This document shows, one piece after another, positions 21,081 to 46,144 of a DNA stretch of 49,080 bases. Source of the stretch: Ignavibacteria bacterium (GTDB lineage Bacteria; Bacteroidota; Ignavibacteria; Kapaibacteriales; UBA4661); the NCBI GenBank assembly GCA_014654705.1, contig JACVZY010000044.1:1-49080 (forward strand). Direction: 5' to 3'. A program made the position numbers and the translations under genes. Numbering within the stretch: position 1 is the first letter of the stretch; each line of letters begins with the position of its first letter. The notes under the pieces are model-generated. The model saw nothing but the letters and a program-made list of their open reading frames with translations. It was not told the origin of the DNA and made no database searches.

Positions 21081-21137
21081 TAGTGTTAATTATTAACTAT
21101 TTTTATCCTTTTTATCCATTTTTTGAAATACTATAGT

Positions 21138-22558: not shown

Positions 22559-22858
22559 TTACGCTTCATGAAGTACAGGCACAACATCTTCTGTGGGAAT
22601 GAACGCCCAAATAAACTCATGCCCGTCAAGTTCGACATCTTCCCGCCGATATGATTCGATGTGTTCTTGTACGGGGCGAGGAACGGGGATTGCCTCTCCG
22701 TCTTCTAGCATTAGTTCAATATGTGCTTGTAGCGCTTCCCGAAATTCTTTCAATGTTTCCTCTACTGTTGCACCCGAACTGACACAACCAAGCACATCGG
22801 GAGAAAAAGCACCATAGTTATTCGATGCTTTTTCGATAATGACTAAATATGAGTTCAT
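22559..22858 (-). CDS. hicB: HicB-family antitoxin
   Basis: 99 residues. The HicB-like N-terminal fold is clear: YLVIIEKASNNYGAFSPDVLG followed by CVSSGATVEETLKEFREAL, with the helix IELMLEDGEAIPVPRP. The C-terminal ~30 residues are acidic. HicB neutralises HicA and usually represses the operon. The ATG overlaps the hicA stop codon (ATGA), indicating translational coupling. The pair lies between copies of the exporter gene's 3' end. Confidence 0.9.
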   Translation of the reverse strand: MNSYLVIIEKASNNYGAFSPDVLGCVSSGATVEETLKEFREALQAHIELMLEDGEAIPVPRPVQEHIESYRREDVELDGHEFIWAFIPTEDVVPVLHEA

Positions 22859-23377: not shown

Positions 23378-23665
23378 ATGATTCAGCAAACAAAGAAATT
23401 GCGCTTGGATGAATTGCAGGTGGATAGTTTTGTGACTTCTGCTTCTTCGTCGGTTGTAACGATTAAAGGTGGAAGTTATACTGATAATGAGCGAGATTGT
23501 CATTCAATACCATATGATGCTTGCGCTACATATGATCCAGTTGCATGGTCTGACTGCTGTCCACCTGAAAGTGTAGCAGGGCGAGATTGCCCTACAGGCG
23601 ATAGGTCATGGTGTGGATATGGGTCGTATTTCACTTGTATAACATCACCAGATATTTGTGACTAA
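23378..23665 (+). CDS. Lanthipeptide-type precursor 1
   Basis: 95 residues. Leader MIQQTKKLRLDELQVDSFVT...IKGG, core of 63 residues with 8 Cys and many Ser/Thr. The start at 23378 has GGAG seven bases upstream; the ATG at 23372 is too close to it. This is the only precursor on the + strand and the only one beside the exporter. The core (ERDCHSIPYDACATY..., ending SPDICD) shares no obvious module with the others. The leader resembles that of the pinensin family of Bacteroidota class I lanthipeptides. Double-Gly cleavage would be done by the C39 domain of the neighbouring exporter. Confidence 0.85.
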   Translation: MIQQTKKLRLDELQVDSFVTSASSSVVTIKGGSYTDNERDCHSIPYDACATYDPVAWSDCCPPESVAGRDCPTGDRSWCGYGSYFTCITSPDICD

Positions 23666-23704: not shown

Positions 23705-23735
23705 AAGGCTATCATTCTGCATGATAGCCTTTTTT
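23705..23735. terminator. Bidirectional terminator between precursor 1 and exporter
   Basis: Perfect 10-bp stem AAGGCTATCA / TGATAGCCTT (23705-23714 and 23722-23731) followed by a T run. It lies between two convergent genes and could serve both. Confidence 0.85.
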
Positions 23736-25923
23736 AATTCCCCAACTCCAACTGATTCTTCACGAGGTGGTAATACGCTCCGCGCAAATCCGTTAGTTCG
23801 CGGTGTGTGCCGTGTTCGATGATGCGTCCTTTTTCCAGCGTAACGATTTGGTCTGCTTTTTTGACCGTGCTGAGGCGGTGCGCTATCACCACCACCGTGC
23901 GCCCCTCGAAAAATTCCTGCAAGTTTCGCATGATGACCATTTCGTTGTTTGCATCCAAAGCACTCGTAGCTTCGTCGAAGAAAAGATACGCCGGGTCTTT
24001 GTACACCGCACGAGCTATCAAAATACGCTGGCGTTGCCCTTGGCTGAGGCCGTGACCGTCCGAGCCGATTTTGGTGTTGTAGCCCAGCGGGAGTGATTCG
24101 ATAAAGTCTTGGATGTTTGCTACGTGAACGGCGTGCAGTAAGCGTTCTTTTTCTACGCGCTCGAACCCAAAGGCGATATTGTTCGCAATAGTATCCGAAA
24201 AAATAAAACCGTCCTGCATCACCACGCCGCACTGCTGTCGCCACACTTTTGCACTGAAGTTTTCCAAGTCAATCGAACTGACGTTTATTTTGCCCGTGAC
24301 AGGCGGATAAAATTTCAAGAGCAATTTCAGCAGGGTCGTTTTACCGCTTCCGCTTGTGCCGACGATGGCGGTCACTTTGCCTTCGGGAATGACCATCGAA
24401 AGGTCTTTCAGCACCGGCTCGGAGTGTGGTCCTTCGTATTGGAAACTCACATTGTCGAGCGTAATCGTGCGGTCTTCGGGGAAGATAGTTACTTTGTCGT
24501 CGTCGGGATTTTCTTCGTTTTCTTTGCCGTGAATTTCCTGCAAGCGTTCCAAACTGAGCTTTGCATCCTGCGCGGATTGAATGAAGCCGATGAGCTGCCC
24601 TACGGGCGCGTTTAACTGCCCGATGATACTTTGCACAGCCATCATCATCCCCAAGGTCATGTCGCCGTCAATAACCGCTTTTGCGGAATAGACCGAAATG
24701 AGAATGTTTTTCAGTTGGTTGATGAAGGAGTTTCCTGCTGACTGGTATTGTCCCAGTGCCAAGCCCGAAACGCTCATGTTGAACATTCGCGCTTGGTTGC
24801 GTTCCCATTCCCAACGTTTGATTTTTTCTGCGCCGTTCAGTTTGATTTCCTGCATTCCGGTAATGAGTTGGATAAGCTGCGACTGATTGCCGGAGGAAAG
24901 CGTAAAACGTTTGTAGTCGAGTTCTTTGCGCTTTTTGAGGAAGAGCACTACCCAGATGGTTGAAAAAACGGTGGAGATGAGGTAAATAATCGCAATCGGA
25001 ACGCTGTACATCACCAGCACAACGCCAAAAATAACGAGGTTCACGAGCGAAAAAAGTGTGTTCAGCGCCGTGCCGGTCAGGAAACTTTCGATGCGGCTGT
25101 TGTCGCTGATGCGCTGCAGGATGTCGCCTATCATCTTCGTATCGAAGAAGGGCAGTGGCAACTTCATGAGTTTGATGAGGAAATCCGAGACGATGGAAAT
25201 GTTGATGCGCGTTCCCAAGTGCAGCAATATCCACGACCGAATAAATTCCACCGCCGTCTGGCTGATAAACAGCGTCACCTGCGCAATCAAAATAAGGTAA
25301 ACGAAATTGAGATTGTGCGTGTTGATACCAAAATCTACAAGCGATTGTGTTAGGAAAGGAGCGGCAAGCTGAAGCAGTGACCCAACCAACATTCCCACAA
25401 AGAGCTGTACGATAAAGCGCCTATACGGACGCAAGTATTGCGCAAAAAATCTGATATTCAGACCTTCTTTGCTTTTGCGCTCGTCTTCGGTCTGGTGGAA
25501 AATGGGTGTGGTTTCGAGCAGTAGAAGTACGCCTTGGTCGCCGATGCTGCACCACCCCTTTTTGAATTCTTCGGGCGTGAAGACGGTCAGTCCGTGTGCG
25601 GGGTCGGCAACGTGAATGTTTCCTTTTTTGTCAATGTCGTACACGACGATAAAGTGCCGTTGATTCCAGTGCGCAATGCAGGGCAGAGGCATTTCGTCCA
25701 GACGGTCGAAGGGAATCTGCACCGATAGCGTTTTGAAGCCGATAGCCTCTGCCGCGTCGCTGATGCCCAAAAGCGAAACGCCTTCGCGGGTGATGTATGC
25801 TTTTTCGCGGAGGTACTGCACGGAATAGACTTTGCCGTAGTGCTTGGCTATCATGCGGAGGCACGACGGACCGCAGTCCATGGATTCGAGTTGGCGATAA
25901 AAAGGGAAGGAGCGAAATTTCAT
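23734..25923 (-). CDS. C39-peptidase ABC exporter (bacteriocin/RiPP type)
   Basis: 729 residues. N-terminal C39 Cys peptidase: QLESMDCGPSCLRM with nucleophile Cys17 and Gln11, His90 in NQRHFIVV and Asp107 in VADPAHG. Six transmembrane helices are expected in the middle (about 165-450). The C-terminal nucleotide-binding domain has Walker A GTSGSGKTT, signature LSQGQRQRI, Walker B YLFFDEATSALD and switch His in VVIAHRLS. Such proteins cut the leader after Gly-Gly and export the core; all 17 precursors end their leader in GG, so this is their probable exporter, with the HlyD protein at 19432-20748. Both ends of this gene have partial copies nearby (22501-22540, 23048-23177, 26558-26612), each flanking an inserted cassette. 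Confidence 0.93.
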   Translation of the reverse strand: MKFRSFPFYRQLESMDCGPSCLRMIAKHYGKVYSVQYLREKAYITREGVSLLGISDAAEAIGFKTLSVQIPFDRLDEMPLPCIAHWNQRHFIVVYDIDKKGNIHVADPAHGLTVFTPEEFKKGWCSIGDQGVLLLLETTPIFHQTEDERKSKEGLNIRFFAQYLRPYRRFIVQLFVGMLVGSLLQLAAPFLTQSLVDFGINTHNLNFVYLILIAQVTLFISQTAVEFIRSWILLHLGTRINISIVSDFLIKLMKLPLPFFDTKMIGDILQRISDNSRIESFLTGTALNTLFSLVNLVIFGVVLVMYSVPIAIIYLISTVFSTIWVVLFLKKRKELDYKRFTLSSGNQSQLIQLITGMQEIKLNGAEKIKRWEWERNQARMFNMSVSGLALGQYQSAGNSFINQLKNILISVYSAKAVIDGDMTLGMMMAVQSIIGQLNAPVGQLIGFIQSAQDAKLSLERLQEIHGKENEENPDDDKVTIFPEDRTITLDNVSFQYEGPHSEPVLKDLSMVIPEGKVTAIVGTSGSGKTTLLKLLLKFYPPVTGKINVSSIDLENFSAKVWRQQCGVVMQDGFIFSDTIANNIAFGFERVEKERLLHAVHVANIQDFIESLPLGYNTKIGSDGHGLSQGQRQRILIARAVYKDPAYLFFDEATSALDANNEMVIMRNLQEFFEGRTVVVIAHRLSTVKKADQIVTLEKGRIIEHGTHRELTDLRGAYYHLVKNQLELGN

Positions 25924-25932: not shown

Positions 25933-26262
25933 TTACAAAATTGCCAGTTGGATTTTTATAGCGTGTTCAATTGCTTTCAAATCATTCATGGCAATAGTGC
26001 CAACCTGATTGATAAAGCGCGATTTGCTTACGGTTGCTATTTGGTCTGCCATTGCTTTATGGGGCGTACCGTTTAGCGTAATCAGAGCTTCGCCCGGATA
26101 GATTGTATGTGTTTTGCTCGATATGGGAATAACTTGAACTCGGTTTAAGGCTGCGTTTGCGGAATCATTACTGACAATAACGGCAGGGCGCTGTTTTTGA
26201 ATTTTTCCGCCAATGGAAGGCTCAAAATTCACCCACCAGACTTCACCGCGTTTCATTGGCAA
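25933..26262 (-). CDS. PemK/MazF-family toxin
   Basis: 109 residues. The family is clear from KRGEVWWVNFEPSIGGKIQK (start of the SH3-like barrel), QRPAVIVSND and the later ALNRVQVIPISSK and ADQIATVSKSRF segments, which carry the conserved Arg/Ser/Thr catalytic region of MazF-type endoribonucleases. ATG 26262 or 26256. It overlaps the preceding antitoxin gene by 20 bp. It ends 9 bp before the exporter start, so it may sit in the same transcript as the exporter. Confidence 0.9.
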   Translation of the reverse strand: MPMKRGEVWWVNFEPSIGGKIQKQRPAVIVSNDSANAALNRVQVIPISSKTHTIYPGEALITLNGTPHKAMADQIATVSKSRFINQVGTIAMNDLKAIEHAIKIQLAIL

Positions 26263-26473
26263 CGTCTCCTATTGTACCTTCCGACCATTCCAAAGCCTCG
26301 CGTTCACGTTCTTCGTCGAGCGCCATTGCACGGTATGCTTCGTCAAGATTTTCTGAAGGGAGATAGGGGCGAACGAGCGATTCGATAAAGCGACCGATAT
26401 TGCGCTTACCTGCTATCGTATAAAGTCCGTTATAGACAGATTCTTCGACGGTGATGGTGAGTTTGCGTTGCAT
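26243..26473 (-). CDS. Antitoxin partner of the PemK/MazF toxin
   Basis: 76 residues from ATG 26473. The open frame extends further upstream, but MQRKLTITVEESVYNGLYTI is the natural beginning: a beta strand plus helix-turn-helix of the ribbon-helix-helix type that binds the operon promoter. The acidic C-terminus (ALDEEREREALEWSEG) would wrap the toxin. Overlap with the toxin start indicates coupling. The pair lies between the intact exporter gene and a copy of its 5' end. Confidence 0.82.
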   Translation of the reverse strand: MQRKLTITVEESVYNGLYTIAGKRNIGRFIESLVRPYLPSENLDEAYRAMALDEEREREALEWSEGTIGDVANETR

Positions 26474-26557
26474 AGAATCAGATGAATGATGTACACGTGG
26501 AACTACACGTGCAATGTACGATTTTGCACAATCATAGCCAAGAAACTCCTTATGAAT

Positions 26558-26612
26558 CATGGACTCCAAGTTGGCGATAAACAGGGAAGGAGCGAAATTT
26601 CATGGGGGAAGA
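26558..26612 (-). pseudogene. 55-bp copy of the exporter gene 5' end
   Basis: This matches 25879-25932 (first ~14 codons plus upstream bases) with four substitutions and a single-base indel that breaks the frame. The toxin-antitoxin cassette occupies the space between the copy and the real start. Confidence 0.85.
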
Positions 26613-27130: not shown

Positions 27131-27445
27131 TTAGCATTGGGTAGTACAGTGATTTACGCCAGCAGTTAGATTACAAATCGGATTCCAATCCGCGGAGTTG
27201 CACTCACCGAGATTACATGTAGCTTCATGAGTTTGATTACACCAAGTCAAAAGTGTATCTCCAGTACAGTTATTATCAACTGTATCATATCCACAAACGT
27301 CCCAATGGCAAGTTCCTACACCAGTCTCACAACTGCCAATAATGCCTTCGGTCATTGAACCACCCTTAAATATTGCTTGATGATTTGTTACAAAACTTTC
27401 TACGCTTAACTCATCCAAGCGCAATTTTTTCTGTTGCACAATCAT
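27131..27445 (-). CDS. Lanthipeptide-type precursor 2
   Basis: 104 residues. Leader KKLRLDELSVESFVT...IFKGG (short, 29 residues), core of 75 residues with 10 Cys and about a dozen Thr. It is the longest and most Thr-rich core in the set, and forms a unit of one gene. It shares no clear module with the others. GGAG lies just upstream of the ATG as in the rest. Confidence 0.85.
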   Translation of the reverse strand: MIVQQKKLRLDELSVESFVTNHQAIFKGGSMTEGIIGSCETGVGTCHWDVCGYDTVDNNCTGDTLLTWCNQTHEATCNLGECNSADWNPICNLTAGVNHCTTQC

Positions 27446-27487
27446 TGTAATACTCCAAAAAGGTAAAAAGGAAAATAATTTACCCTA

Positions 27488-27599
27488 CAAAACTACGACA
27501 CTCACCCCCTGCAAAACAATAGCCCGGGAGTGAATGTAGGCAAAAACGGAGTGAACGTAGGCAAAAACGGAGTGAACGTAGGCAAAAACGGAGTGAACG
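27488..27599 (-). promoter_or_regulatory. Array and promoter, unit A (precursor 2)
   Basis: On the minus strand: -7 TAGTTTTG (27488-27495), 21-bp spacer, -33 TTG (27517-27519), then three 21-bp units to 27599. The block 27621-27654 beyond it resembles the 3' end of the LytTR regulator gene (34404-34436). Confidence 0.75.
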
Positions 27600-27677
27600 C
27601 GGGCGAGAAAAAAGTGTCTGCTCTTGTCATTTTTTGCGGCAGGCGGAAATGATGCTGCGAACAGAGAGGTAGAAAGC

Positions 27678-27709
27678 AAAAAGCCCTTTTTCCAAAAAGA
27701 AAAAGGGCA
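27678..27709 (-). terminator. Terminator of unit B
   Basis: Stem GCCCTTTTT / AAAAAGGGC with A5 on the + strand (T5 in the transcript), 43 bp after the stop of precursor 3. Confidence 0.8.
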
Positions 27710-27751
27710 TAGAATTTTTCAAGGTGGTCGAGTGAGAGACTCGCTCTTCGA

Positions 27752-28045
27752 TTACATACAAATAAATTGCCCAATTTCGCTAGCACCACAACCGGGCAAT
27801 CCTGGCAATGTCTGGCATGGAACACAACTTGGGACATCAATAGTTGGGCAATTTGCTTGTGTGGCACAAGCGTCGCATCCGCTATTCGCACAACTACCTT
27901 GAACTAAATAGCTGCGACAAAATGCTCCACCACATGTTTCTCCGGGTCCTGAATTACCGCCCAAAAGAATTTGTTCATTTTGAGTATCTGTGATAAAGCT
28001 TTTTACTTGAATTTCATCAAGCCGAAGTTTAACTGAGGATTTCAT
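27752..28045 (-). CDS. Lanthipeptide-type precursor 3
   Basis: 97 residues. Leader KLRLDEIQVKSFIT...ILLGG, core of 67 residues with 10 Cys. The core begins NSGPGETCGGAFCR, shared with precursor 13, and continues NSGCDACATQANCP, again as in 13 (ITGCDDCATQVRCP). It ends SCVPCQTLPGLPGCG..IGQFICM, shared with precursor 5. It is thus a mosaic of modules. Single-gene unit. Confidence 0.85.
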   Translation of the reverse strand: MKSSVKLRLDEIQVKSFITDTQNEQILLGGNSGPGETCGGAFCRSYLVQGSCANSGCDACATQANCPTIDVPSCVPCQTLPGLPGCGASEIGQFICM

Positions 28046-28091
28046 ATAACTCCAAAAAAGGATAAAAAGGAAAATAAATTAATTTATTCTA

Positions 28092-28162
28092 TAAAACTAT
28101 GACACTACTCCCTGCAAAACAATAGCCCGAGAGTGAGCGTAGGCAAAAGTGGAGTGAACGCG
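28092..28162 (-). promoter_or_regulatory. Short array and promoter, unit B (precursor 3)
   Basis: -7 TAGTTTTA (28092-28099), 20-bp spacer, -33 TTG (28120-28122), and only about one and a half 21-bp units, the shortest array of the set. The -7 element has one deviation (A for G). This promoter may be weaker or less responsive. Confidence 0.65.
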
Positions 28163-28227
28163 GATGGGAAAAGGCATCTGTTCTCATTATTTTTCGAGGT
28201 AAACGAAAATTGGGGTACCAAACAAAG

Positions 28228-28260
28228 AACAAAAAGCCTCTTCTCATTATTTGAAAAGAG
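28228..28260 (-). terminator. Terminator of unit C
   Basis: Stem GCCTCTT / AAGAGGC with an A run on the + strand, 23 bp after the stop of precursor 4. Confidence 0.75.
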
Positions 28261-28282
28261 GCAAACAATAAATTTTGTATTG

Positions 28283-28621
28283 TTATCCGCATATAAATTG
28301 GTCAGGACCACTACAACCAACATTTACTTGCTGACTAACTGGTACGTAGCCTCCACAATTATTATTACACGATTGGCAATTGGTAGCCATAAATGTACCG
28401 CCATTACCTGAACCAGTGTAGTAATCTTTAGTTTGAAGGCATATTTTTGAACAACCTTCACATGAAGCATCTTTTACCGTTATATTTCCATCACCAGCCA
28501 TACAACGCAGATTGGTATCTTCTTCTCCACCATGTAAGGTACGCACAAAATCTTTTGTAGATGTAACAAAGCTATCAACGTGTAACTCATCCAAGCGCAA
28601 TTTTTTTGTTTGCTGAATCAT
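28283..28621 (-). CDS. Lanthipeptide-type precursor 4
   Basis: 112 residues, the longest precursor. Leader MIQQTKKLRLDELHVDSFVT...TLHGG, core of 80 residues with 9 Cys, notably Gly/Asn-rich (GSGNGGTFMATNCQSCNNNC). The end, VNVGCSGPDQFICG, is shared with precursor 16. Single-gene unit with GGAG seven bases before the ATG. Confidence 0.85.
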   Translation of the reverse strand: MIQQTKKLRLDELHVDSFVTSTKDFVRTLHGGEEDTNLRCMAGDGNITVKDASCEGCSKICLQTKDYYTGSGNGGTFMATNCQSCNNNCGGYVPVSQQVNVGCSGPDQFICG

Positions 28622-28674
28622 GTCAAAGCTCCAAAAAAGATGTAAAAAGGAAAACGTAGTTAAAACGTATGGTA

Positions 28675-28786
28675 CAAAACTACGACACTCACCCCCTGCA
28701 AAACAATAGCCCGGGAGTGAGCGTAGGCAAAAACGGAGTGAACGTAGGCAAAAACGGAGTGAACGTAGGCAAAAACGGAGTGAACG
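28675..28786 (-). promoter_or_regulatory. Array and promoter, unit C (precursor 4)
   Basis: -7 TAGTTTTG (28675-28682), 21-bp spacer, -33 TTG (28704-28706), three 21-bp units. The stretch 28684-28945 is almost identical to 27481-27745 (array, regulator 3'-end relic and terminator), marking a recent segmental duplication. Confidence 0.75.
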
Positions 28787-28863
28787 CGGGCGAGAAAAAA
28801 GTGTCTGCTCTTGTCATTTTTTGCGGCAGGCGGAAATGATGCTGCGAACAGAGAGGTAGAAAG

Positions 28864-28895
28864 CAAAAAGCCCTTTTTCCAAAAAGAAAAAGGGC
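28864..28895 (-). terminator. Terminator of unit D
   Basis: Identical in design and almost in sequence to the unit B terminator: stem GCCCTTTTT / AAAAAGGGC with flanking A run. Confidence 0.8.
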
Positions 28896-28938
28896 ATAGA
28901 ATTTTTCAAGGTGGTCGAGTGAGATACTCGCTCTTCGA

Positions 28939-29238
28939 TTACATACAAATAAATTGCCCAATTTCGCTAGGACCACAGCCCGGCAATCCTGGCAGAGTTT
29001 GGCATGGAATACAACTTGGGGCATTCTGGGAACAATTATCTGTTTCTTGTGGACAACCTACAGTAGGGCACCATGGAGAAAATGCTGATGCACCACAACA
29101 AATAGGATCCGTACAACTTTCAAATGTAGGTATTCCTGTTCCACCACGGTTGTGAGAGTTAGCTTCCGTAGAAGTAACAAAACTACGAACGGAAATATCT
29201 TCCAATTTGAGCTTATGGTGTTTTTTGGAGGGAGTCAT
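28939..29238 (-). CDS. Lanthipeptide-type precursor 5
   Basis: 99 residues. Variant leader KHHKLKLEDISVRSFVT...HNRGG, core of 66 residues with 10 Cys. The core begins TGIPTFESCTDPICC, as in precursors 12 and 15, and ends SCIPCQTLPGLPGCG..IGQFICM, as in precursor 3. Last gene of unit D. Confidence 0.85.
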   Translation of the reverse strand: MTPSKKHHKLKLEDISVRSFVTSTEANSHNRGGTGIPTFESCTDPICCGASAFSPWCPTVGCPQETDNCSQNAPSCIPCQTLPGLPGCGPSEIGQFICM

Positions 29239-29286
29239 AAAAAAAAGATACTAGATGTTGGAATAAACAAAATTAGAATAATTTAT

Positions 29287-29598
29287 TTAACACTGGAACT
29301 CGCCTGGGTTTGTGCAGAGACAAACCGACCCGCCTTCGTTAGAGACTGGACATTCGTTCGGAACACAACTTGGAACATTGTAGGAGCAGAGGTCTGATAC
29401 TGGTTGACAATCACTGATAGGATCTGTGCAATAACATGATTGAGGTGGATCGGAAAGGCATCTGCACGTTCCTATACGCTTACCTTCATATGTCTGACCT
29501 CCAAGAATATCACCTGTCTTGACGATTAAATCTAAGGCGGTCACAAAACTATCTACTTGCAACTCGTCCAAACGCAATTTTTTTGTTTGCTCAATCAT
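29287..29598 (-). CDS. Lanthipeptide-type precursor 6
   Basis: 103 residues. Leader MIEQTKKLRLDELQVDSFVT...DILGG, core of 69 residues with 11 Cys, the highest count. It includes the CXC pairs RCRC-like TCRC, SCYC and VCLC. The end, SVCLCTNPGEFQC, is shared with precursor 15. Middle gene of unit D. Confidence 0.85.
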   Translation of the reverse strand: MIEQTKKLRLDELQVDSFVTALDLIVKTGDILGGQTYEGKRIGTCRCLSDPPQSCYCTDPISDCQPVSDLCSYNVPSCVPNECPVSNEGGSVCLCTNPGEFQC

Positions 29599-29723
29599 GG
29601 TAAAACTCTAAAAAGAAAAATCAATCAGATATTTAGAAAGTTCGCGAACTTATTGAAATTGTTCAAGCAAAAGACTCATTTAACAAACAAATACGCCAGC
29701 GTTGTAGTTGCATCGTCTGAAGA

Positions 29724-30020
29724 TTAGCACTCACAAAATTGGCTGCCACCACACTCAACGGGACTGGTAGCACCCAGGCAACCACAAACTGACATATTTG
29801 TGCAAATAATGGGCGAGTTGGTGCAGAGGTTTAGTGAGCATCCCCAAGTTCCTTCAGGAAGGCATGCTGGTTGCGTTTTTGGTTGATCAGTGCATTCGTC
29901 TTTGACTTGTGTGAACCCGCCACCAGCTTTGATGGTATCGGTATTATTTATTGGTGTTGTTACAAAGCTGTTCACTTGTAATTCACCAAGGCGCAATTTT
30001 TTTGTTGGTTGAATCATCAT
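29724..30020 (-). CDS. Lanthipeptide-type precursor 7
   Basis: 98 residues from ATG 30020, which lies six bases after GGAG; ATG 30017 is the alternative. Leader MMIQPTKKLRLGELQVNSFV...IKAGG has Gly in place of the usual Asp of LRLDEL. Core of ~63 residues with 10 Cys (GCSLNLCTNSPIICTN, ending GSQFCEC). First gene of unit D. Confidence 0.82.
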   Translation of the reverse strand: MMIQPTKKLRLGELQVNSFVTTPINNTDTIKAGGGFTQVKDECTDQPKTQPACLPEGTWGCSLNLCTNSPIICTNMSVCGCLGATSPVECGGSQFCEC

Positions 30021-30072
30021 AAAAAACTCCAAAAAGATGTAAAAAGGAAAAACGTAGTTACAATGTATAGTG

Positions 30073-30184
30073 CAAAACTACGACCCTCACCCCCAGCAAA
30101 ACAATAGCCCGGGAGTGAACGTAGGCAAAAACGGAGTGAACGTAGGCAAAAACGGAGTGAACGTAGGCAAAAACGGAGTGAACG
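30073..30184 (-). promoter_or_regulatory. Array and promoter, unit D (precursors 7, 6, 5)
   Basis: -7 TAGTTTTG (30073-30080), 21-bp spacer, -33 TTG (30102-30104), three 21-bp units. The block at 30205-30240 resembles the LytTR regulator 3' end. Confidence 0.75.
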
Positions 30185-30252
30185 CGGACAGGAAAAAGTG
30201 CCTCGTCTCGTCATTTTTTCATCGTAGGCAGAAACAATAGCACGTATTGAGC

Positions 30253-30286
30253 AAAAAAAAGCCTCTTCACAAAAATATGAAGAGGC
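30253..30286 (-). terminator. Terminator of unit E
   Basis: Stem GCCTCTTCA / TGAAGAGGC with eight A on the + strand, 45 bp after the stop of precursor 8. Confidence 0.85.
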
Positions 30287-30330
30287 ATGTCCGAGCTATT
30301 GTCAATGGCACATAGGAGACGATGTAATCA

Positions 30331-30633
30331 TTATTCCCAGCACGGAACAGGTGTCTGTGCCATTGTGGGCATATGTGGTGGGCAGTTATTATCGCATGAA
30401 GCCTCACCGTTGACCGTTACCGGGCAATATACATAATAAGTAGCCGGACAATAATATTGGACTCTGGTGTTACAGTCAATAGGATCTTCCGTATCCCAAC
30501 TCGCACAACCTTTATTATTAAAGGTTGGATTTCCACCTTTTAGCTCTGCTGTTCCTGAAAATGAGTTTATCGTAGTCGTGAAACTTTCTACTTTCAGTTC
30601 ACTCAAGTGGAGTTTTTTTGTTTGCTTAATCAT
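30331..30633 (-). CDS. Lanthipeptide-type precursor 8
   Basis: 100 residues. Leader MIKQTKKLHLSELKVESFTT...ELKGG, core of 66 residues with 7 Cys. The middle CPVTVNGEASCDNNCPP recurs in precursor 12, and the end CPPHMPTMAQTPVPCWE recurs in precursors 9 and 12. The N-terminal half (FNNKGCASWDTEDPIDC) is private. Second gene of unit E. Confidence 0.85.
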   Translation of the reverse strand: MIKQTKKLHLSELKVESFTTTINSFSGTAELKGGNPTFNNKGCASWDTEDPIDCNTRVQYYCPATYYVYCPVTVNGEASCDNNCPPHMPTMAQTPVPCWE

Positions 30634-30699
30634 TGTAAATATCGTTAGATGAAAAATGAATGTATGTTTTTTGATAATTTTTTGCTTTAGAGATTGAAA

Positions 30700-30963
30700 T
30701 TATTCCCAGCACGGAATCGGTGTTTGTGCCATTGTGGGCATATGCGGCGGGCAGTTATTACAAGATAATTCCTGAGACTCAACCGGAAAGCAATTTGGTA
30801 TGTACTCAGTGATAGGGTAACAAACAGTACAAGAGCATAATGTTGGTAGGTTGTCTGTGTATTGAGTCCCACCACGAAGAGAGTTATCATTATGATTCAA
30901 TGCAGTAACAAAACTGTTCACTGAAAGATCTTCTAGGTGCAATTTTTTTGTTTGCTGAATCAT
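30700..30963 (-). CDS. Lanthipeptide-type precursor 9
   Basis: 87 residues. Leader MIQQTKKLHLEDLSVNSFVT...SLRGG, core of 55 residues with 7 Cys. It begins TQYTDNLPTLCSCTVC (private) and ends NNCPPHMPTMAQTPIPCWE, as in precursors 8 and 12. First gene of unit E. Confidence 0.85.
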   Translation of the reverse strand: MIQQTKKLHLEDLSVNSFVTALNHNDNSLRGGTQYTDNLPTLCSCTVCYPITEYIPNCFPVESQELSCNNCPPHMPTMAQTPIPCWE

Positions 30964-31017
30964 ATCAAAACTCCAAAAAAGAAATAAAAAGGAAAAAGTA
31001 GTTAAAACTTAATGGTA

Positions 31018-31129
31018 CAAAACTACGACACTCACCCCCAGCAAAACAATAGCCCGGGAGTGAGTGTAGGCAAAAGTGGAGTGAACGTAGGCAAAAGTGG
31101 AGTGAACGTAGGCAAAAGTGGAGTGAACG
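31018..31129 (-). promoter_or_regulatory. Array and promoter, unit E (precursors 9, 8)
   Basis: -7 TAGTTTTG (31018-31025), 21-bp spacer, -33 TTG (31047-31049), three 21-bp units of the AAAAGTGG variant. At 31150-31185 the sequence TTCATCGCCGACAGAAATTG differs by one base from the LytTR regulator 3' end. Confidence 0.75.
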
Positions 31130-31205
31130 CGGACGGGAAAAAGTGGTCGTTCTTATCATTTATTCATCGCCGACAGAAATTGTATCATTTGAATGCACAG
31201 GAGAT

Positions 31206-31241
31206 AAAAAAACGCACCCGAAAAATACGGGTGCGTTTTTT
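31206..31241 (-). terminator. Terminator of unit F
   Basis: Perfect stem AAAAACGCACCCG / CGGGTGCGTTTTT, 25 bp after the stop of precursor 10; the strongest hairpin of the set and not related in sequence to the others. Confidence 0.88.
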
Positions 31242-31266
31242 ATCTACTTCATTTTTCTTTCAAAGA

Positions 31267-31569
31267 TTAGACGGGTACGGGCACTGTGCAGTTCCATGAG
31301 TCTTGATCACAGCCTGCACAAACACTACCACCGTCACAAGTTCCACCAACTGAAACAGGTGGGCAACCAAAATTACCAGCACAATTACTAACTGCCGGCC
31401 AACCGCTGAAGGGGGCGCACCAAAACAGATTGGTACACCATCCTCCGGGTCCTAAATCAGATATCATCATACTAGTCCCACCATTTGCTTCCTTAGAAGC
31501 ATTTTTAGTAGTTACAAAGCTTTCAACTTGCAACTCATCTAAGCGCAGTTTTTTCTTTTGCTCGCTCAT
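31267..31569 (-). CDS. Lanthipeptide-type precursor 10
   Basis: 100 residues from ATG 31569 (five more in-frame codons lie upstream). Leader MSEQKKKLRLDELQVESFVT...EANGG, core of 69 residues with 8 Cys, rich in Gly and Trp (GPGGWCTNLFWCAPFSGW), ending NCTVPVPV without a terminal Cys module. No shared module seen. Second gene of unit F. Confidence 0.82.
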   Translation of the reverse strand: MSEQKKKLRLDELQVESFVTTKNASKEANGGTSMMISDLGPGGWCTNLFWCAPFSGWPAVSNCAGNFGCPPVSVGGTCDGGSVCAGCDQDSWNCTVPVPV

Positions 31570-31650
31570 CACAAAAACTCTCAAAAAAGAATAAAAAAAA
31601 TTGGAAACAATGTTTCAAATCATTATCTCCTGATGCAGACCATGGTAATC

Positions 31651-31953
31651 TTATTCGGGAGTAGGCAAACCTTCTGGAGGATAGCATATTTCAGGGCTTT
31701 GGGTACAAACATTTTCAGTCCATATACAATCTGGATCTAGTGTTGCGGCATTGCAATTTTCAATTGTTTCGGCTATGCCACCACAAAGAGCACTAGTTCC
31801 AATTGAACAAACAGTAAAATTTCTTGTATAGTAGTCGTAAGGCTCTGTAACATCGTCACCACCTCTGATTGTTCTTCTAGAAAAACCGGAAGTTGTTACA
31901 AAACTTTCTACCTGCAATTCGTCCAAGCGGAATTTTTTCTTTTGCTCAATCAT
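31651..31953 (-). CDS. Lanthipeptide-type precursor 11
   Basis: 100 residues. Leader MIEQKKKFRLDELQVESFVT...TIRGG, core of 68 residues with only 6 Cys and many acidic and Tyr residues, ending ICYPPEGLPTPE. No shared module seen. First gene of unit F. Confidence 0.83.
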   Translation of the reverse strand: MIEQKKKFRLDELQVESFVTTSGFSRRTIRGGDDVTEPYDYYTRNFTVCSIGTSALCGGIAETIENCNAATLDPDCIWTENVCTQSPEICYPPEGLPTPE

Positions 31954-32001
31954 GGCATAAGCTCCAAAAAAGGAAAAAGGAAAATAAAATAATTTACCCT
32001 A

Positions 32002-32113
32002 CAAAACTACGACACTCACCCCCTGCAAAACAACAGCCCGGGAGTGAGCGTAGGCAAAAACGGAGTGAACGTAGGCAAAAATGGAGTGAACGTAGGCAAA
32101 AACGGAGTGAACG
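32002..32113 (-). promoter_or_regulatory. Array and promoter, unit F (precursors 11, 10)
   Basis: -7 TAGTTTTG (32002-32009), 21-bp spacer, -33 TTG (32031-32033), three 21-bp units. The block 32135-32170 resembles the regulator 3' end. Confidence 0.75.
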
Positions 32114-32181
32114 CGGGCGGGAAAAAGTGCCTCGTCTTGTCATTTTTTCATTGCAGGCGGAAACAATAGCACGTAAGGATC

Positions 32182-32218
32182 AAAAAAATGCCTCTTCATG
32201 TTTTTGTGAAGAGGCATG
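32182..32218 (-). terminator. Terminator of unit G
   Basis: Stem ATGCCTCTTCA / TGAAGAGGCAT with a seven-A run, related to the unit E terminator. Confidence 0.85.
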
Positions 32219-32259
32219 TACGAACTATTGTCAATGGCACATAGGAGATAACGGAGTTA

Positions 32260-32520
32260 TTATTCCCAGCATGGAATCGGTGTTTGTGCCATCGTCGGCA
32301 TCGGGGGTGGGCAGTTATTATCGCATGAAGCCTCACCATTAACAGTTACAGGACATACTCCCCAAGACGGTGGCAAACAACAAAGACCAGTGCAGCTCTC
32401 AAATGTGGGTAAATTACCTGTTCCGCCACGTTGATGAGAAGTATCTTCTAAAGACGTGACAAAACTGAAAATAGAAAGCTCGTTCAATTTGAGCTTGTTT
32501 TTTGTTTGGTTGCTGTTCAT
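32260..32520 (-). CDS. Lanthipeptide-type precursor 12
   Basis: 86 residues from ATG 32520; an upstream in-frame ATG (32550) would add ten residues unlike other leaders. Variant leader TKNKLKLNELSIFSFVT...HQRGG, core of 53 residues with 7 Cys. The start GNLPTFESCTGLCC is shared with precursors 5 and 15; the middle and end (CPVTVNGEASCDNNCPP, MPTMAQTPIPCWE) with 8. Third gene of unit G. The 223 bp between this start and precursor 13 show nothing recognisable. Confidence 0.83.
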   Translation of the reverse strand: MNSNQTKNKLKLNELSIFSFVTSLEDTSHQRGGTGNLPTFESCTGLCCLPPSWGVCPVTVNGEASCDNNCPPPMPTMAQTPIPCWE

Positions 32521-32743
32521 AATACAAAAAATACTTGTGGATAAATACAATAAATTATTGTTCTAAATGATTTTAGCTGGAAAAAGATTGGTGCGATTTC
32601 GAGACTATTAATCAGACAAGGTGTTACCCCCCACCCGTTATAAAGAGCGCTTCAATACTTGTGCTTGAGCTAGTCTTCTTCGTATTTTCAACTGAATTCA
32701 ACTAGAACCTAAGTTATTAAGTACAAAAGAAAGTAGTACCGTA

Positions 32744-32998
32744 CTAGACGTAACACGGTATAGGTGTTTGATCCATTGTAGGAATTTGCGGAGGATATGG
32801 ACATCTAACTTGTGTAGCGCAATCATCGCACCCAGTAATTTCACAATTAGTTTGATCAGTTGCACGGCAAAATGCTCCACCACATGTACCTACGGGTACT
32901 GAGTTACCACCTAAAAGGTTAGATGAGTTCTGAGAGCCTGTTATAAAACTGCTAACATTTATCTCGTTTAAGCGCAATTTTTTCTTTTCCTCAGTCAT
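32744..32998 (-). CDS. Lanthipeptide-type precursor 13
   Basis: 84 residues. Leader MTEEKKKLRLNEINVSSFIT...NLLGG, core of 53 residues with 7 Cys. The start NSVPVGTCGGAFCR and middle GCDDCATQVRCP are shared with precursor 3, but the end is IPTMDQTPIPCYV, as in precursor 14. Second gene of unit G. Confidence 0.85.
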   Translation of the reverse strand: MTEEKKKLRLNEINVSSFITGSQNSSNLLGGNSVPVGTCGGAFCRATDQTNCEITGCDDCATQVRCPYPPQIPTMDQTPIPCYV

Positions 32999-33033
32999 GG
33001 TTGTATTTTCTATAAGATAAAAAAACTATGAAT

Positions 33034-33357
33034 TTACACATAACAAGGAATCGGAGTTTGATTCATTGTAGGAATAACAGGTGGGCATCCAAATGTATTA
33101 GCTGGACAACCATATGTTACTGGACAATCTGGTGTTGGGCACGGTTGTAAAGCTCCTGAAACTCCGCAGGGGTCACTGTTCGATTTGTCATCTGGGGGTC
33201 CAATAGTTAGATCTCCGCAAATACAAGAACCAAAAGTGAGGCAGTGGTGGGCGGGCTGAGTTATATTGCCACCCAAAACTATATCTCTAGAAGATGGTAT
33301 AACAAAGCTATCGACTTTCAATTCATCCAAGCGCATTTTTTTCTTTTGCTCAATCAT
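33034..33357 (-). CDS. Lanthipeptide-type precursor 14
   Basis: 107 residues. Leader MIEQKKKMRLDELKVDSFV...IVLGG, 30 residues long; the core of 77 residues has 9 Cys and an unusually high Pro content. The end VIPTMNQTPIPCYV matches precursor 13 and, more loosely, 8, 9 and 12. First gene of unit G. Confidence 0.85.
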   Translation of the reverse strand: MIEQKKKMRLDELKVDSFVIPSSRDIVLGGNITQPAHHCLTFGSCICGDLTIGPPDDKSNSDPCGVSGALQPCPTPDCPVTYGCPANTFGCPPVIPTMNQTPIPCYV

Positions 33358-33405
33358 GTCAAAACTCCAAAAAAGGAAAGAAGGAAAATAAAATAATTTA
33401 CCCTA

Positions 33406-33517
33406 CAAAACTACGACCCTCACCCCCAGCAAAACAATAGCCCGGGAGTGAGTGTAGGCAAAAGTGGAGTGAACGTAGGCAAAAACGGAGTGAGCGTAGG
33501 CAAAAACGGAGTGAACG
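33406..33517 (-). promoter_or_regulatory. Array and promoter, unit G (precursors 14, 13, 12)
   Basis: -7 TAGTTTTG (33406-33413), 21-bp spacer, -33 TTG (33435-33437), three 21-bp units mixing AAAAGTGG and AAAAACGG variants. Confidence 0.75.
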
Positions 33518-33564
33518 CGGACGGCTAGTTTTCATGTTTTTCAGATGAAGAATAAAACAGAAAT

Positions 33565-33597
33565 AAAAAAGCCCCTTCTTTGGTTAGAAGAAGAGGC
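33565..33597 (-). terminator. Terminator of unit H
   Basis: A six-A run followed by GCCCCTTCTT and AGAAGAAGAGGC, an imperfect stem, 29 bp after the stop of precursor 15. Confidence 0.65.
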
Positions 33598-33625
33598 GGA
33601 AAATTTAGATTACATTCAATATCTG

Positions 33626-33898
33626 TTAACAGAAGAACTGACCGGGATTAGTGCACAAACAAACAGAATTATATTCATTTGTTGCATGACAGCCGAAATT
33701 ATAAGATTGTCCTCCTTGATTAGGGGGGCATATTTCCGGGGGATATGCTGTTTCACAGCATGCCCCAGTACAACTTTCATTCGTTGGTACTCCACCAGTT
33801 CCACCGTGCTTTTGGGGATTAGTTTCTAATGAAGTGACAAAACTGTGAACGGAAATATCTTCTAATGTGAGTTTGTTTTTTTTCTGGATGGTATTCAT
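33626..33898 (-). CDS. Lanthipeptide-type precursor 15
   Basis: 90 residues. Variant leader KKNKLTLEDISVHSFVT...QKHGG, core of 57 residues with 8 Cys. It begins TGGVPTNESCTGACC, as in 5 and 12, and ends SVCLCTNPGQFFC, as in 6. It starts 3 bp after the stop of precursor 16, the tightest spacing in the locus. Confidence 0.85.
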   Translation of the reverse strand: MNTIQKKNKLTLEDISVHSFVTSLETNPQKHGGTGGVPTNESCTGACCETAYPPEICPPNQGGQSYNFGCHATNEYNSVCLCTNPGQFFC

Positions 33899-33901
33899 GG
33901 C

Positions 33902-34219
33902 TTATTGGCAAATTATTTGATCAGGTCCGCTACAACCAACGTTTACTGCTTGACTACCACCTAAGTCACTACCGCAACCACAAGTTGCTGCGCAAGTATT
34001 ACAGCCTGTATTAACATAGGAACCGTACCCACCACCACAATCACCTGAAGCACCAGATTTTTTAAGACAATTAATATTTGTGCAGCGTGCGCAAGAAGGA
34101 GCATCATCTTCTGTTGGAAAATCACCACCACGAATTGTTTGTGGTACTTTTACCGTACTTGTTACAAAACTATCCACCGTTATCTCATCTAAGCGTAATT
34201 TTTTTGTTTGCTGAATCAT
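33902..34219 (-). CDS. Lanthipeptide-type precursor 16
   Basis: 105 residues. Leader MIQQTKKLRLDEITVDSFVT...TIRGG, core of 73 residues with 10 Cys, Gly-rich (GDCGGGYGSYVNTGCNTC). The end VNVGCSGPDQIICQ is shared with precursor 4. First gene of unit H. Confidence 0.85.
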   Translation of the reverse strand: MIQQTKKLRLDEITVDSFVTSTVKVPQTIRGGDFPTEDDAPSCARCTNINCLKKSGASGDCGGGYGSYVNTGCNTCAATCGCGSDLGGSQAVNVGCSGPDQIICQ

Positions 34220-34408: not shown

Positions 34409-35656
34409 TCATTTTTTCATTGCCGACAGAAATTGCGTCCACATTCTGGAGGAAACGTCCACGCGCTCGCCGTTGGAAAGAAACGCAAAGCCGTCGCGGG
34501 CATGGGAGAAATACCTGCGGTTAATGATGTGTGAGCGGTGCGTCTGGTAAAAAACCGTTTCGGGCAATTCCTGCGAACATTCTTGGAGGGTCTTGGCAAT
34601 GACGAAGGGTTTGCCTTTGGTGTGATAGACAATCGCATATTTTCCGTCTGCCTGTAGATGAACAATCTGTTCCCATTCTAAAATATAGACGGTTCTGTCT
34701 TTTGCTTTAATCGTCCAGCTTTTTTCTTTGGGTGCGTTCTCGGTCGTCGTCGTCGGCTCTGTGGTAATAAATTTCGGCGATACGTTCGATTCCACACCCA
34801 CATTGCGCAGCGAAAACACCCGCTCGACTGCTTTTTGCAAATGTGCGGGGTCAATGGGCTTCACAATAAAATCAATGGCATCGTACCGGAACGCCCGTGC
34901 GCCGAACTCGGGATAACTGGTCACAAAAATGACCGCAAAACTTGGATTGGCAAAAGCATCCAGCACATCGAAGCCCGTACCGCCGATAAGTTCGATATCC
35001 AGAAAGACCAGCTCGGGTTGGTGTTCTTTGATGACCGCTATTGCCGAATCCACCGAAAAGGCTTCGCCGACAAGCGCAACGCGGTCGCCGAATGTTTCTT
35101 CTACTTTATAGCGCAATGCCGAGCGCTGTGCTTTTTCGTCGTCCACGACGATAGCGCGAAGCGGTGAAGCATTTACTTTTGTCGTCGTCGTTGTCGTCGG
35201 CTCGTTTTCTAGGAGTGTTTCGGCGTTCGCACTCTGCTTACTACGTTTTTCGATAACTTTTTCCAGCGATGCAATAATATCTTCCGGTTGAAATGGTTTG
35301 ACCAGATATTCCGTCGCGCCAAAACGAATAGCTTCTTGGGCGTATTGAAAATTCGTTTGTGCCGACATGATGATGATGTCGAACGTTCGGTCGGGAATGG
35401 CAGCTAAACCCTTAAACGCAGAACCGCCGCGCACTTGAATATCCAAGAGGACAATATCGGGCTTCTCTGCGCCGATTAAATCCGTCACTTCTTGTACGGT
35501 CTCGCAATGCCCAACAACGCGTACTGCCGGAAAATACTTCGTTAGGATTGTTTTGAGGGATTTGTAGGTAATAAAATCATCTTCGACAATGACGAGCCGA
35601 ACCGGTTGTTCGGCGTTTGGTATTGCTACATCGGTGCTAATGAGAGAGGGTTCCAT
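34409..35656 (-). CDS. Double-receiver LytTR response regulator, probable regulator of the precursor units
   Basis: 415 residues with an unusual REC-REC-LytTR layout. Receiver 1 (about 19-135): IVEDD acidic pair, Asp72 in VLLDIQVRGG, Lys120 in YLVKPF. A Thr-rich linker (TTTTTT) follows. Receiver 2 (about 166-282): VVDDE, Asp220 in VFLDIELIGG, Lys266 in FIVKPID. After a second TTTT linker comes the LytTR domain (about 312-412: YILEWEQIVHLQADGKYAIV, THRSHIINRRYF). Both receivers keep the phosphorylation residues, so two inputs may be integrated. It lies 82 bp after lanC on the same strand, directly upstream of the precursor units. The 21-bp arrays before those units have the half-site and period expected of LytTR targets. 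No kinase is adjacent. Confidence 0.9.
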   Translation of the reverse strand: MEPSLISTDVAIPNAEQPVRLVIVEDDFITYKSLKTILTKYFPAVRVVGHCETVQEVTDLIGAEKPDIVLLDIQVRGGSAFKGLAAIPDRTFDIIIMSAQTNFQYAQEAIRFGATEYLVKPFQPEDIIASLEKVIEKRSKQSANAETLLENEPTTTTTTKVNASPLRAIVVDDEKAQRSALRYKVEETFGDRVALVGEAFSVDSAIAVIKEHQPELVFLDIELIGGTGFDVLDAFANPSFAVIFVTSYPEFGARAFRYDAIDFIVKPIDPAHLQKAVERVFSLRNVGVESNVSPKFITTEPTTTTENAPKEKSWTIKAKDRTVYILEWEQIVHLQADGKYAIVYHTKGKPFVIAKTLQECSQELPETVFYQTHRSHIINRRYFSHARDGFAFLSNGERVDVSSRMWTQFLSAMKK

Positions 35657-41631: not shown

Positions 41632-41874
41632 TTAGCTACAGCAATTCGTCTCGCCGCCTGCGCTACAGAGTGGTCCTGTTGGCTCAATTTGACATCCCTT
41701 TGTTGGGCAAACTTGAATACTCATTACAATTGTTTCAAGAACACACCACCACACAGGTCTTGTAGAATCACCACCGTGAACTTGCATAGTTTTTTGAGCA
41801 TCAACGGGTGATGTTGTTACAAAACTCTCGACTTTTAGCTCGTCGAGACGCATTTTTTTCTTTTGCTCTACCAT
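41632..41874 (-). CDS. Lanthipeptide-type precursor 17
   Basis: 80 residues, the shortest. Leader MVEQKKKMRLDELKVESFVT...MQVHGG, core of ~45 residues with 6 Cys, ending GGETNCCS. It is 7 kb from the main block and lacks a 21-bp array; instead its promoter contains a 12-base homopolymer. GGAG lies seven bases before the ATG. It sits beside the lanB elimination-domain gene and the CPBP protease. Confidence 0.85.
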   Translation of the reverse strand: MVEQKKKMRLDELKVESFVTTSPVDAQKTMQVHGGDSTRPVWWCVLETIVMSIQVCPTKGCQIEPTGPLCSAGGETNCCS

Positions 41875-42007: not shown

Positions 42008-42979
42008 TCACATCGCATCCAAACTCCGCATAATCAAAAATCCCAGATACCCTTCGTCCCGATTCAAAATGCCCAAGCGGTTGTTCGTCATATGGACGTA
42101 CGAGCCGAGAATACTTTTGCCAAAAAGATTATTCTGCACTTCGGGCGAGGTACTCTGCATGGGGTCGGTGATTTCGCCGCGTTCTTTTGCGGCGTGGAAA
42201 TCGCGAGCGGTGGCTTGGACGGCACGAATCCAATCGTTAAGCCATTCTTGTTCAAATTCTACGCCTTCGTGGAGTGCTTCCCAAACGGTTTTGTGGAAGG
42301 GGAGAAGCATTTGTTGTTGCCGCTCGAATTGCTCCTCGAATGCTTTCAGCACGGCATCTTGTGCTTCCTTGCGTTGTTCCGGTGTAAGGTCGGTGCGGTG
42401 TCCGCCGTAAGCGCTCGGCAGCCAGCCGTAAAAAATGGAGCGGTAAAATTCTTGCGCTTCTTTGAGCGTCATACCCATTGCGTAGGCGAAGCTGAGGTGC
42501 ATTTGTATTGCAGCGCCCAACGCTCGCTCGTAGGTGTAAACGCTGCTCTCCTGCATAATGCGGAGAATAGTCGCGCTCGAATCTTGAAAGTGCCGCTCGG
42601 CAATGAGGATTCCCACCTCGCCGCCGTAACGCTCGGTTTCAGGTTCGTATTCTATCCACTGTACCGAATTATTCGGATACCAACGGTCGCCGTCGGGCAA
42701 TGTCGCCTCCCACTCCGGCGTTTTCCGTTCTGAGGGATGCTGCGCCATGTAGTCCGCAAAAAACTCAGCCAGTCGCGGCTTCACGGTTTCTTCCAGCACG
42801 GCGGCATCACCTTTGAAGCGTAAACGAATGTGGGGACCACGCTCCCAATAGCGAATGAAAAAATACTGCTCCACGCCGGAAACCTGCATGGTTTCGTGGA
42901 TGAAGGGCTGGACGGCGTTCAGGAGAAGTTCCGTCCAGGGTTCGGCATAGTAGAGATAAGCGGCGAGCCATTGCTGCAT
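42008..42979 (-). CDS. LanB C-terminal (glutamate-elimination) domain protein of a split dehydratase
   Basis: 323 residues. The sequence is typical of the stand-alone thiopeptide/lanthipeptide dehydratase C-terminal domain: MQQWLAAYLYYAEPWTELLL, QYFFIRYWERGPHIRLRFKG, the central WIEYEPETERYGG and late HMTNNRLGI motifs are family hallmarks. In class I systems this half removes glutamate from glutamylated Ser/Thr to give dehydro residues. The partner glutamylation half, using glutamyl-tRNA, is not in the window, so it must be encoded elsewhere. It starts about 130 bp after 5' flanking sequence of precursor 17 and runs in the same direction as lanC and the precursors. Confidence 0.87.
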   Translation of the reverse strand: MQQWLAAYLYYAEPWTELLLNAVQPFIHETMQVSGVEQYFFIRYWERGPHIRLRFKGDAAVLEETVKPRLAEFFADYMAQHPSERKTPEWEATLPDGDRWYPNNSVQWIEYEPETERYGGEVGILIAERHFQDSSATILRIMQESSVYTYERALGAAIQMHLSFAYAMGMTLKEAQEFYRSIFYGWLPSAYGGHRTDLTPEQRKEAQDAVLKAFEEQFERQQQMLLPFHKTVWEALHEGVEFEQEWLNDWIRAVQATARDFHAAKERGEITDPMQSTSPEVQNNLFGKSILGSYVHMTNNRLGILNRDEGYLGFLIMRSLDAM

Positions 42980-46122: not shown

Positions 46123-46144
46123 TGCTTTTTGGGTTATTATTTCG

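What the first reader, a model, noticed from the sequence alone, without database searches (positions are those of the whole stretch)
27131..34219. Precursor cores are mosaics of interchangeable modules
Seen: start module TG.PT.ESCT..CC occurs in precursors 5, 12, 15; GTCGGAFCR start in 3 and 13. End modules: QTLPGLPGCG..IGQFICM in 3 and 5; MAQTPIPCWE in 8, 9, 12; PTM(D/N)QTPIPCYV in 13, 14; VCLCTNPG.F.C in 6 and 15; VNVGCSGPDQ.IC in 4 and 16. Starts and ends combine differently in each. Inference: recombination shuffles core halves, multiplying products.
Basis: partly seen in the sequence, partly recalled or inferred. Interest (0 to 1): 0.85.

Follow-up and report, generated by a model that had tools for sequence, protein, structure and literature searches.

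The report
Shuffled cores in a lanthipeptide array
A bacterium carries a row of small genes for probable ring-forming peptides, several of which look spliced together from the same few interchangeable start and end pieces, a natural parallel to the mix-and-match peptide engineering that chemists attempt.

Summary
It carries 15 same-strand precursor genes (27131-34219) and two outliers, with pinensin-type leaders and Cys-rich cores. Seventeen shared core segments exceed the maximum of 20 shuffled controls. Identity jumps inside cores, from at most 16/30 to 26-30/30 for P03/P05, and stays high through stop, terminator and promoter. Best explanation: homologous exchange between repeated intergenic segments carries the neighbouring end module along; modules then appear to be held by purifying selection. 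Nine of 17 genes take part; P04/P16 are probably plain paralogues; five cores (P01, P02, P07, P11, P17) share no module above threshold. New here: 11 promoters carry 21-bp-period repeats with LytTR-operator geometry, beside a LytTR regulator gene. Distinct products are untested. This is a diversity-generating class I lanthipeptide locus with exchange inside cores: a new variant of a known kind.

The parts
23378..23665 (+).
   Evidence: operator and promoter upstream
27131..27445 (-). P02 precursor; no shared core module found
27752..28045 (-). P03 precursor: start B (27845-27955), end a (27755-27838)
28283..28621 (-). P04 precursor: end e (28289-28357); probable full-length paralogue of P16
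28939..29238 (-). P05 precursor: start A (29095-29139), middle shared with P06, end a (28942-29025)
29287..29598 (-). P06 precursor: middle shared with P05, end d (29290-29352)
29724..30017 (-). P07 precursor (ATG start); whole-core relative in G005 (L060)
30331..30633 (-). P08 precursor: long end b (30334-30426)
30700..30963 (-). P09 precursor: short end b (30703-30759)
31267..31569 (-). P10 precursor (ATG start); weak FGCPPV match to P14, below threshold
31651..31953 (-). P11 precursor; no shared core module found
32260..32520 (-). P12 precursor (ATG start): start A (32377-32421), end b (32263-32355)
32744..32998 (-). P13 precursor: start B (32798-32905), end c (32747-32794)
33034..33357 (-). 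P14 precursor: end c (33037-33084)
33626..33898 (-). P15 precursor: start A (33755-33799), end d (33629-33691)
33902..34219 (-). P16 precursor: end e (33908-33976)
41632..41874 (-). P17, outlying precursor next to the LanB elimination-domain gene
27492..27835 (-). shared tract with 28679-29022: 3' core of P03, stop, terminator region, operator, promoter (edges approximate)
   Evidence: identity profile; about 202 nt of it is exact
28679..29022 (-). partner tract: 3' core of P05 through operator and promoter of P04
30069..30428 (-). shared tract with 31998-32357: 3' core of P08 through operator/promoter of P07 (edges approximate)
31998..32357 (-). partner tract: 3' core of P12 through operator/promoter of P11
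34311..34384 (-). one of 11 operator arrays (TACGTTCAC-like 9-mers at 21-bp period, 10 bp before TTG); the others begin at 20905, 23221, 27527, 28117, 28714, 30112, 31057, 32041, 33445, 40498
34409..35656 (-). REC-REC-LytTR response regulator, candidate binder of the operators
   Evidence: Pfam PF00072 (two stretches), PF04397
35739..37829 (-). LanC-like cyclase
   Evidence: PF05147 1.3e-53; partial TIGR03897 match under its cut-off
42008..42979 (-). stand-alone LanB elimination domain
   Evidence: PF14028 4e-44
23734..25923 (-). ABC transporter with C39 peptidase (leader removal at GG and export, by family)
   Evidence: PF03412, PF00664, PF00005
19432..20748 (-). HlyD-type export adaptor
   Evidence: PF13437

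Best explanation
This is an expanded class I lanthipeptide locus with pinensin-type leaders. One set of enzymes (LanB glutamylation protein on contig C21, LanB elimination protein and LanC in the window, C39 ABC exporter) would process about 17 precursors. Homologous exchange between copies of a repeated segment (terminator, 21-bp operator array, promoter, leader) spreads into the 3' end of the gene upstream of it, so a block carries the end module of one core into another. Older exchanges, or another route, have left further shared ends without shared flanks. Modules then stay nearly fixed at the protein level while synonymous sites diverge. Shown: shared modules, conflicting start and end histories, sharp identity edges within cores, nonsynonymous change below synonymous. 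Inferred: gene conversion or unequal crossover as the event, one enzyme set for all precursors, LytTR control of the operators, and a distinct product per chimera.
For: AU tests in opposite directions on the P03/P05/P12/P13 quartet. Exact triplet tests over 680 triplets (4080 tests): P05 from P15 start and P03 end, p 5.9e-15; P12 from P05 start and P08 end, 6.8e-12; P13 from P03 start and P14 end, 3.2e-11; P03 from P13 start and P05 end, 9.9e-10; lowest p in four codon-shuffled controls 1.7e-6. Identity along P03-P02 against P05-P04 is 8-16 of 30 up to 27822, then 26-30 of 30 to 27492; P08-P07 against P12-P11 goes from at most 14 of 30 to 21-29 of 30 between 30428 and 30069. The 60 nt after the stop match 59 of 60 for P03/P05 and 46 of 60 for P08/P12. 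pN is below pS in all five end types (a 0.061/0.27, b 0.034/0.57, c 0.095/0.75, d 0.25/0.86, e 0.20/0.68; few sites, no significance test). The repeat pattern occurs only on this contig in this genome, with the same geometry at 11 promoters.
Against: Sequences are short. Ends a and b/c are not demonstrably homologous to each other, so the end tree mainly records two unlike pairs. The triplet scan is not clean: several rows with P01 as child (with P04 and P13, p 1.0e-8) have no shared module that I can see, and shuffled controls gave 5, 4, 1 and 0 Bonferroni-significant rows against 53 real ones. P15 x P06 (1.6e-6) does not clearly beat the controls by that test (lowest control 1.7e-6), only by the segment test. 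Six of eight end-sharing pairs examined (P08/P09, P09/P12, P13/P14, P06/P15, P04/P16, P12/P14) show no flank similarity above shuffles, so the promoter-anchored route is shown for two pairs only. No strain comparison was possible. P07's relative in another species is unshuffled, and no outside donor of the shared modules was found. No product, expression or enzyme data.
Confidence: 0.8

Rival explanations
1. Simple tandem duplication followed by divergence, with starts and ends diverging at different rates and no recombination.
For: Genes are tandem and same-strand; P04/P16 look like plain paralogues.
Against: All four combinations of two starts and two ends exist; AU tests reject a common tree; sharp identity edges inside cores.
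Confidence: 0.05
2. Convergence: the same end motifs arose repeatedly because the function or the cyclase demands them.
For: Nonsynonymous change is well below synonymous in the ends.
Against: Identity extends to nucleotides, 75 of 84 in a and 52 of 57 in P08/P09, and in two pairs continues into noncoding DNA.
Confidence: 0.04
3. Assembly chimeras from a repetitive locus in a draft genome.
For: Draft of 118 contigs; a repeat of about 202 nt occurs twice.
Against: That is the only exact direct repeat of 70 nt or more between 26901 and 34500 and it is intergenic (27536 and 28723); core junctions lie in non-identical sequence, where exact-overlap assembly should not switch. It could still have swapped the order of whole units.
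Confidence: 0.04
4. A dedicated diversifier (diversity-generating retroelement, integron-like or site-specific recombinase) does the shuffling.
For: Cassette-like array with repeated intergenic segments.
Against: No reverse transcriptase match in the genome (0 of 1 at E 0.001; 3 of 14 control genomes ring). No recombinase family among 27 window proteins scanned; other window ORFs and the rest of the genome were not scanned for recombinases. Junctions differ from pair to pair.
Confidence: 0.05

Closest known systems
Pinensin-family class I lanthipeptides of Bacteroidetes (PMC7268733, passages read; NCBIfam NF038180)
   Same: Leader family, GG site with C39 exporter, split LanB, LanC resembling LanM cyclase domains
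   Different: Seventeen precursors with shared, recombined core modules; LanB N-part on another contig
Prochlorosins of marine picocyanobacteria (PMC10783134, passages read)
   Same: Conserved GG leader, many diverse cores, one promiscuous enzyme; authors suspect recombination-related proteins of generating the diversity
   Different: Class II with Nif11 leaders; passages read propose transfer and insertion-deletion in cores, not exchange of modules
Prochloron cyanobactins (PMC3062557, passages read)
   Same: Natural combinatorial replacement of product-coding DNA in an otherwise constant locus
   Different: Short whole cassettes (24 bp) change between strains; here parts of cores are recombined within one genome
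Nitrile-hydratase and Nif11 leader precursors (PMC2887384, passages read)
   Same: Paralogous precursor arrays called natural combinatorial; intragenic recombination proposed
   Different: The recombination proposed there joins leader families; here it is within cores
LytTR-controlled promoters (PMC6193735 and PMC4847170, passages read)
   Same: 9-bp direct repeats at 12-bp spacing, mostly 10 bp upstream of the -35 element; LytTR gene nearby
   Different: 2-7 half-sites rather than two; TTG-N20/21-TAnnTTT promoter

Membership tests
Pinensin-type class I lanthipeptide | Pinensin leader model NF038180 | tested here: met
   15 of 17 window precursors over the cut-off, P13 and P14 under it
Pinensin-type class I lanthipeptide | Gly-Gly before the core, C39 peptidase exporter | tested here: met
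   GG in 17 of 17 (listing; in P06 it lies four residues past my core boundary); PF03412 1.5e-35
Pinensin-type class I lanthipeptide | LanB glutamylation and elimination on separate proteins | tested here: met
   PF04738 on G000:C21, PF14028 at 42008-42979
Pinensin-type class I lanthipeptide | LanC cyclase | tested here: met
   PF05147 1.3e-53
Pinensin-type class I lanthipeptide | Lanthionine rings in the product | not testable with these tools
   Only that Ser+Thr is at least Cys in 17 of 17 cores
Diversity-generating RiPP locus | One leader type, many distinct cores | tested here: met
   listing
Diversity-generating RiPP locus | Shared enzymes modify all cores | not testable with these tools
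   Inferred from the single LanC and single elimination gene in the window; a weaker LanC-like match lies on C94
Diversity-generating retroelement | Reverse transcriptase | tested here: not met
LytTR operator | 9-bp repeats, 11-13 bp spacer, about 10 bp before -35 | tested here: met
   11 window promoters and 3 in G005; no hit in 200 mononucleotide shuffles
LytTR operator | Binding by the LytTR protein | not testable with these tools
   none

The most novel reading that the evidence does not exclude
The array is an evolved combinatorial engine: identical LytTR-type operators and promoters double as recombination anchors, so exchange between promoters keeps re-pairing ring-autonomous end modules with resident starts, and selection keeps the modules while varying the pairing.
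Probability: 0.3. Interest if true: 0.75.

Novelty: new variant of a known kind. Interest (0 to 1): 0.55.

Why it matters
Chemists splice lanthipeptide rings to make new compounds and must guess where cuts are tolerated (own knowledge; PMC9486960 seen in a listing only). Here evolution appears to have made such splices in one genome, with one start type on three end types and one end type behind different starts. The junctions mark where a cyclase set may tolerate change, and each module can be tested for closing its own rings. In the listings of ten searches and the passages read from seven papers I saw no description of exchange of parts of cores within a lanthipeptide array. That is a limited look: most subscription journals are not held, and the 2017 paper on prochlorosin evolution could not be opened.

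Tried and rejected
Diversity-generating retroelement: no reverse transcriptase in the genome. Simple duplication, convergence and misassembly: see rivals. Operator pattern in viral contigs: 0 matches. Cross-species module sharing: 17 window cores were compared with 18 precursors from other genomes that my leader pattern picked out of the fetched loci (precursors it missed, for instance those of G364, were not compared); only P07 (whole core, L060 in G005) and a 15-residue piece of P10 (L065 in G006) exceed 59, the maximum of five shuffles. Cys-Pro at junctions as a recombination signal: suggestive for P12/P08 and P13/P14 by eye, but 12 of 17 cores hold Cys-Pro, up to four each, so not claimed. 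The first P05/P15 start comparison was out of register and is not used. An erythromycin-esterase link to lanthipeptides: three papers hold both terms, none read.
Full report
What is there. The nearest named relative found is a Candidatus Kapaibacterium MAG: contig JANYDO010000073.1 has the same length and match start as G005:C440, so G005 is probably that MAG. Fifteen minus-strand precursor genes fill 27131-34219, with a further one at 23378-23665 (+) and one at 41632-41874 (-). The pinensin leader model (NF038180) is passed by 15 of the 17; P13 and P14 fall just below its cut-off. Around them lie a LanC-like cyclase, a stand-alone LanB elimination domain, a C39-type exporter, a REC-REC-LytTR regulator and an HlyD-type adaptor. 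The LanB glutamylation part is on another contig, C21.

Are the modules real? An ungapped comparison of all 136 core pairs in codon register gave 17 segments above the highest score of 20 shuffled replicates. Start A passes only for P12/P15 in that scan; P05/P12 and P05/P15 lie just under the maximum, though single-pair tests of the first 20 core residues gave 0 of 1000 shuffles for each of the three pairs. Ends b and c turn out to be one family. P04/P16 resemble each other weakly along the rest of the core (6 of 1000 shuffles) and at 52% over the gene. Nine genes take part in sharing that is not plain paralogy: P03, P05, P06, P08, P09, P12, P13, P14, P15. P01, P02, P07, P11 and P17 share no segment above the threshold, and P10 only one below it.

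Is it recombination? With b and c as one family, two starts and two ends occur in all four pairings: A-a (P05), B-a (P03), A-b (P12), B-b (P13). For these four genes the start alignment favours ((P05,P12),(P03,P13)) and rejects the alternatives (AU p at most 0.00062 with the leader, 0.000033 without its conserved part), while the end alignment favours ((P05,P03),(P12,P13)) and rejects the others (p about 0.0043). A caveat: a and b ends are not demonstrably homologous to each other, so the end tree mainly records two unlike pairs. An exact triplet test over all 680 triplets of the 17 genes, 4080 tests, has P05, P12, P13 or P03 as child in its seven best rows. The control with shuffled cores was less clean than a textbook null: minimum p 1.7e-6, 3.2e-6, 4.8e-6 and 2.0e-5, and 5, 4, 1 and 0 rows under a Bonferroni 0.05, against 53 real rows. 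Rows above about 1e-6 are therefore not trusted, which includes P15 x P06 (1.6e-6), and several stronger rows (P01 with P04 and P13, 1.0e-8, is the eighth) have no module behind them that I can see.

How does it happen? Along P03-P02 against P05-P04 the identity is at background, 8-16 of 30, until coordinate 27822 inside the core, then 26-30 of 30 through the end module, stop codon, terminator region and operator to 27492. It falls to 16 and 21 of 30 between promoter and start codon, is 22-25 of 30 in most of the leader, and is background in the next core. About 202 bases of this are exactly identical. P08-P07 against P12-P11 shows the same shape at lower identity, 21-29 of 30 from 30428 to 30069. 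I read this as exchange anchored in the repeated terminator-operator-promoter segment and running out inside the upstream core, so that an end module travels with it. The other shared ends have no flank similarity above shuffles (six of eight pairs), so they are either older or arose by another route.

What keeps the modules? Nonsynonymous difference is below synonymous in every end type, with ratios from 0.06 to 0.30. The counts are small and no significance test was run, but this points to purifying selection on modules while their partners change, and argues against cores that merely drift.

Regulation. Eleven promoters in the window share one build: 2-7 nine-mers like TACGTTCAC at 21-bp period, 10 bp, TTG, 20 or 21 bp, TAnnTTT; mononucleotide-shuffled sequence gave none in 200 tries. 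Papers on LytTR regulators describe 9-bp repeats with 12-bp spacing, mostly 10 bp upstream of the -35 element (PMC6193735, passages), and 9-11 nt repeats with 11-13 nt spacers (PMC4847170, passages). A LytTR gene lies directly beside the array, and a second at 4854-5687. In this genome the repeat pattern occurs only on this contig (32 matches with up to one mismatch), and among seven other genomes of the genus only in G005 (5 matches), with the same geometry at three places. The operators precede P01, P02, P03, P04, P07, P09, P11, P14 and P16, an uncharacterised protein at 21123-22163 (no Pfam match) and, some 300 bases away, an erythromycin-esterase-like gene at 38328-40178. The remaining array precursors follow another precursor and are probably co-transcribed; P17 lacks the operator. 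That the regulator binds these sites is inferred.

Context. In a survey of 391 genomes drawn from the class, 12 had a match to the leader model at E 0.001; this genome had 15 matches, the next 7 (G005), then 4 or fewer. An array of this size is thus rare in that sample. In G005 a whole-core relative of P07 sits between the HlyD gene and a piece of the ABC gene's 3' end, a different place from P07 here, which suggests that whole genes move as well.

Verdict. The recombination reading is well supported for four genes and likely for nine; the claim about multiplied products is open. It is a new variant of a known kind: a diversity-generating class I lanthipeptide locus with exchange inside cores.

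Noticed in passing
   Followed up: partly
window 38328-40178 and 43071-44405; L059, L058: Two erythromycin-esterase-like genes lie in the locus, one downstream of a LytTR-type operator; in G005 relatives of both lie next to precursor genes, suggesting an accessory role.
   Followed up: partly
window 36289-36367: A 30-bp tandem repeat lies in frame inside the lanC gene; the G005 copy lacks this stretch, which resembles sequence elsewhere in G005.
   Followed up: no
window 48850-49080: The contig's right end encodes a fragment like the C-terminus of the LanB on C21, and C21 also carries proteins that by eye resemble the S41 peptidases at 44413-48812, pointing to a duplicated arrangement.
   Followed up: no
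window 1-53 and 49027-49079: The contig ends carry a 53-bp inverted exact match; part of it recurs in a G006 contig, so it may be an interspersed repeat at which assembly stopped.
   Followed up: no
window 46145-46321: A 58-residue ORF resembles the N-terminus of the LanC-like protein, probably a remnant.
   Followed up: no
window 25933-26569 and 22559-22858: A PemK/MazF-like toxin gene with a likely partner ORF, and a HicB-like antitoxin ORF, flank the exporter gene beside the array.
   Followed up: no
window 29095-29139, 32377-32421, 33755-33799: All three start-A genes (P05, P12, P15) appear to be the last gene of an operator-headed group (inferred).
   Followed up: no
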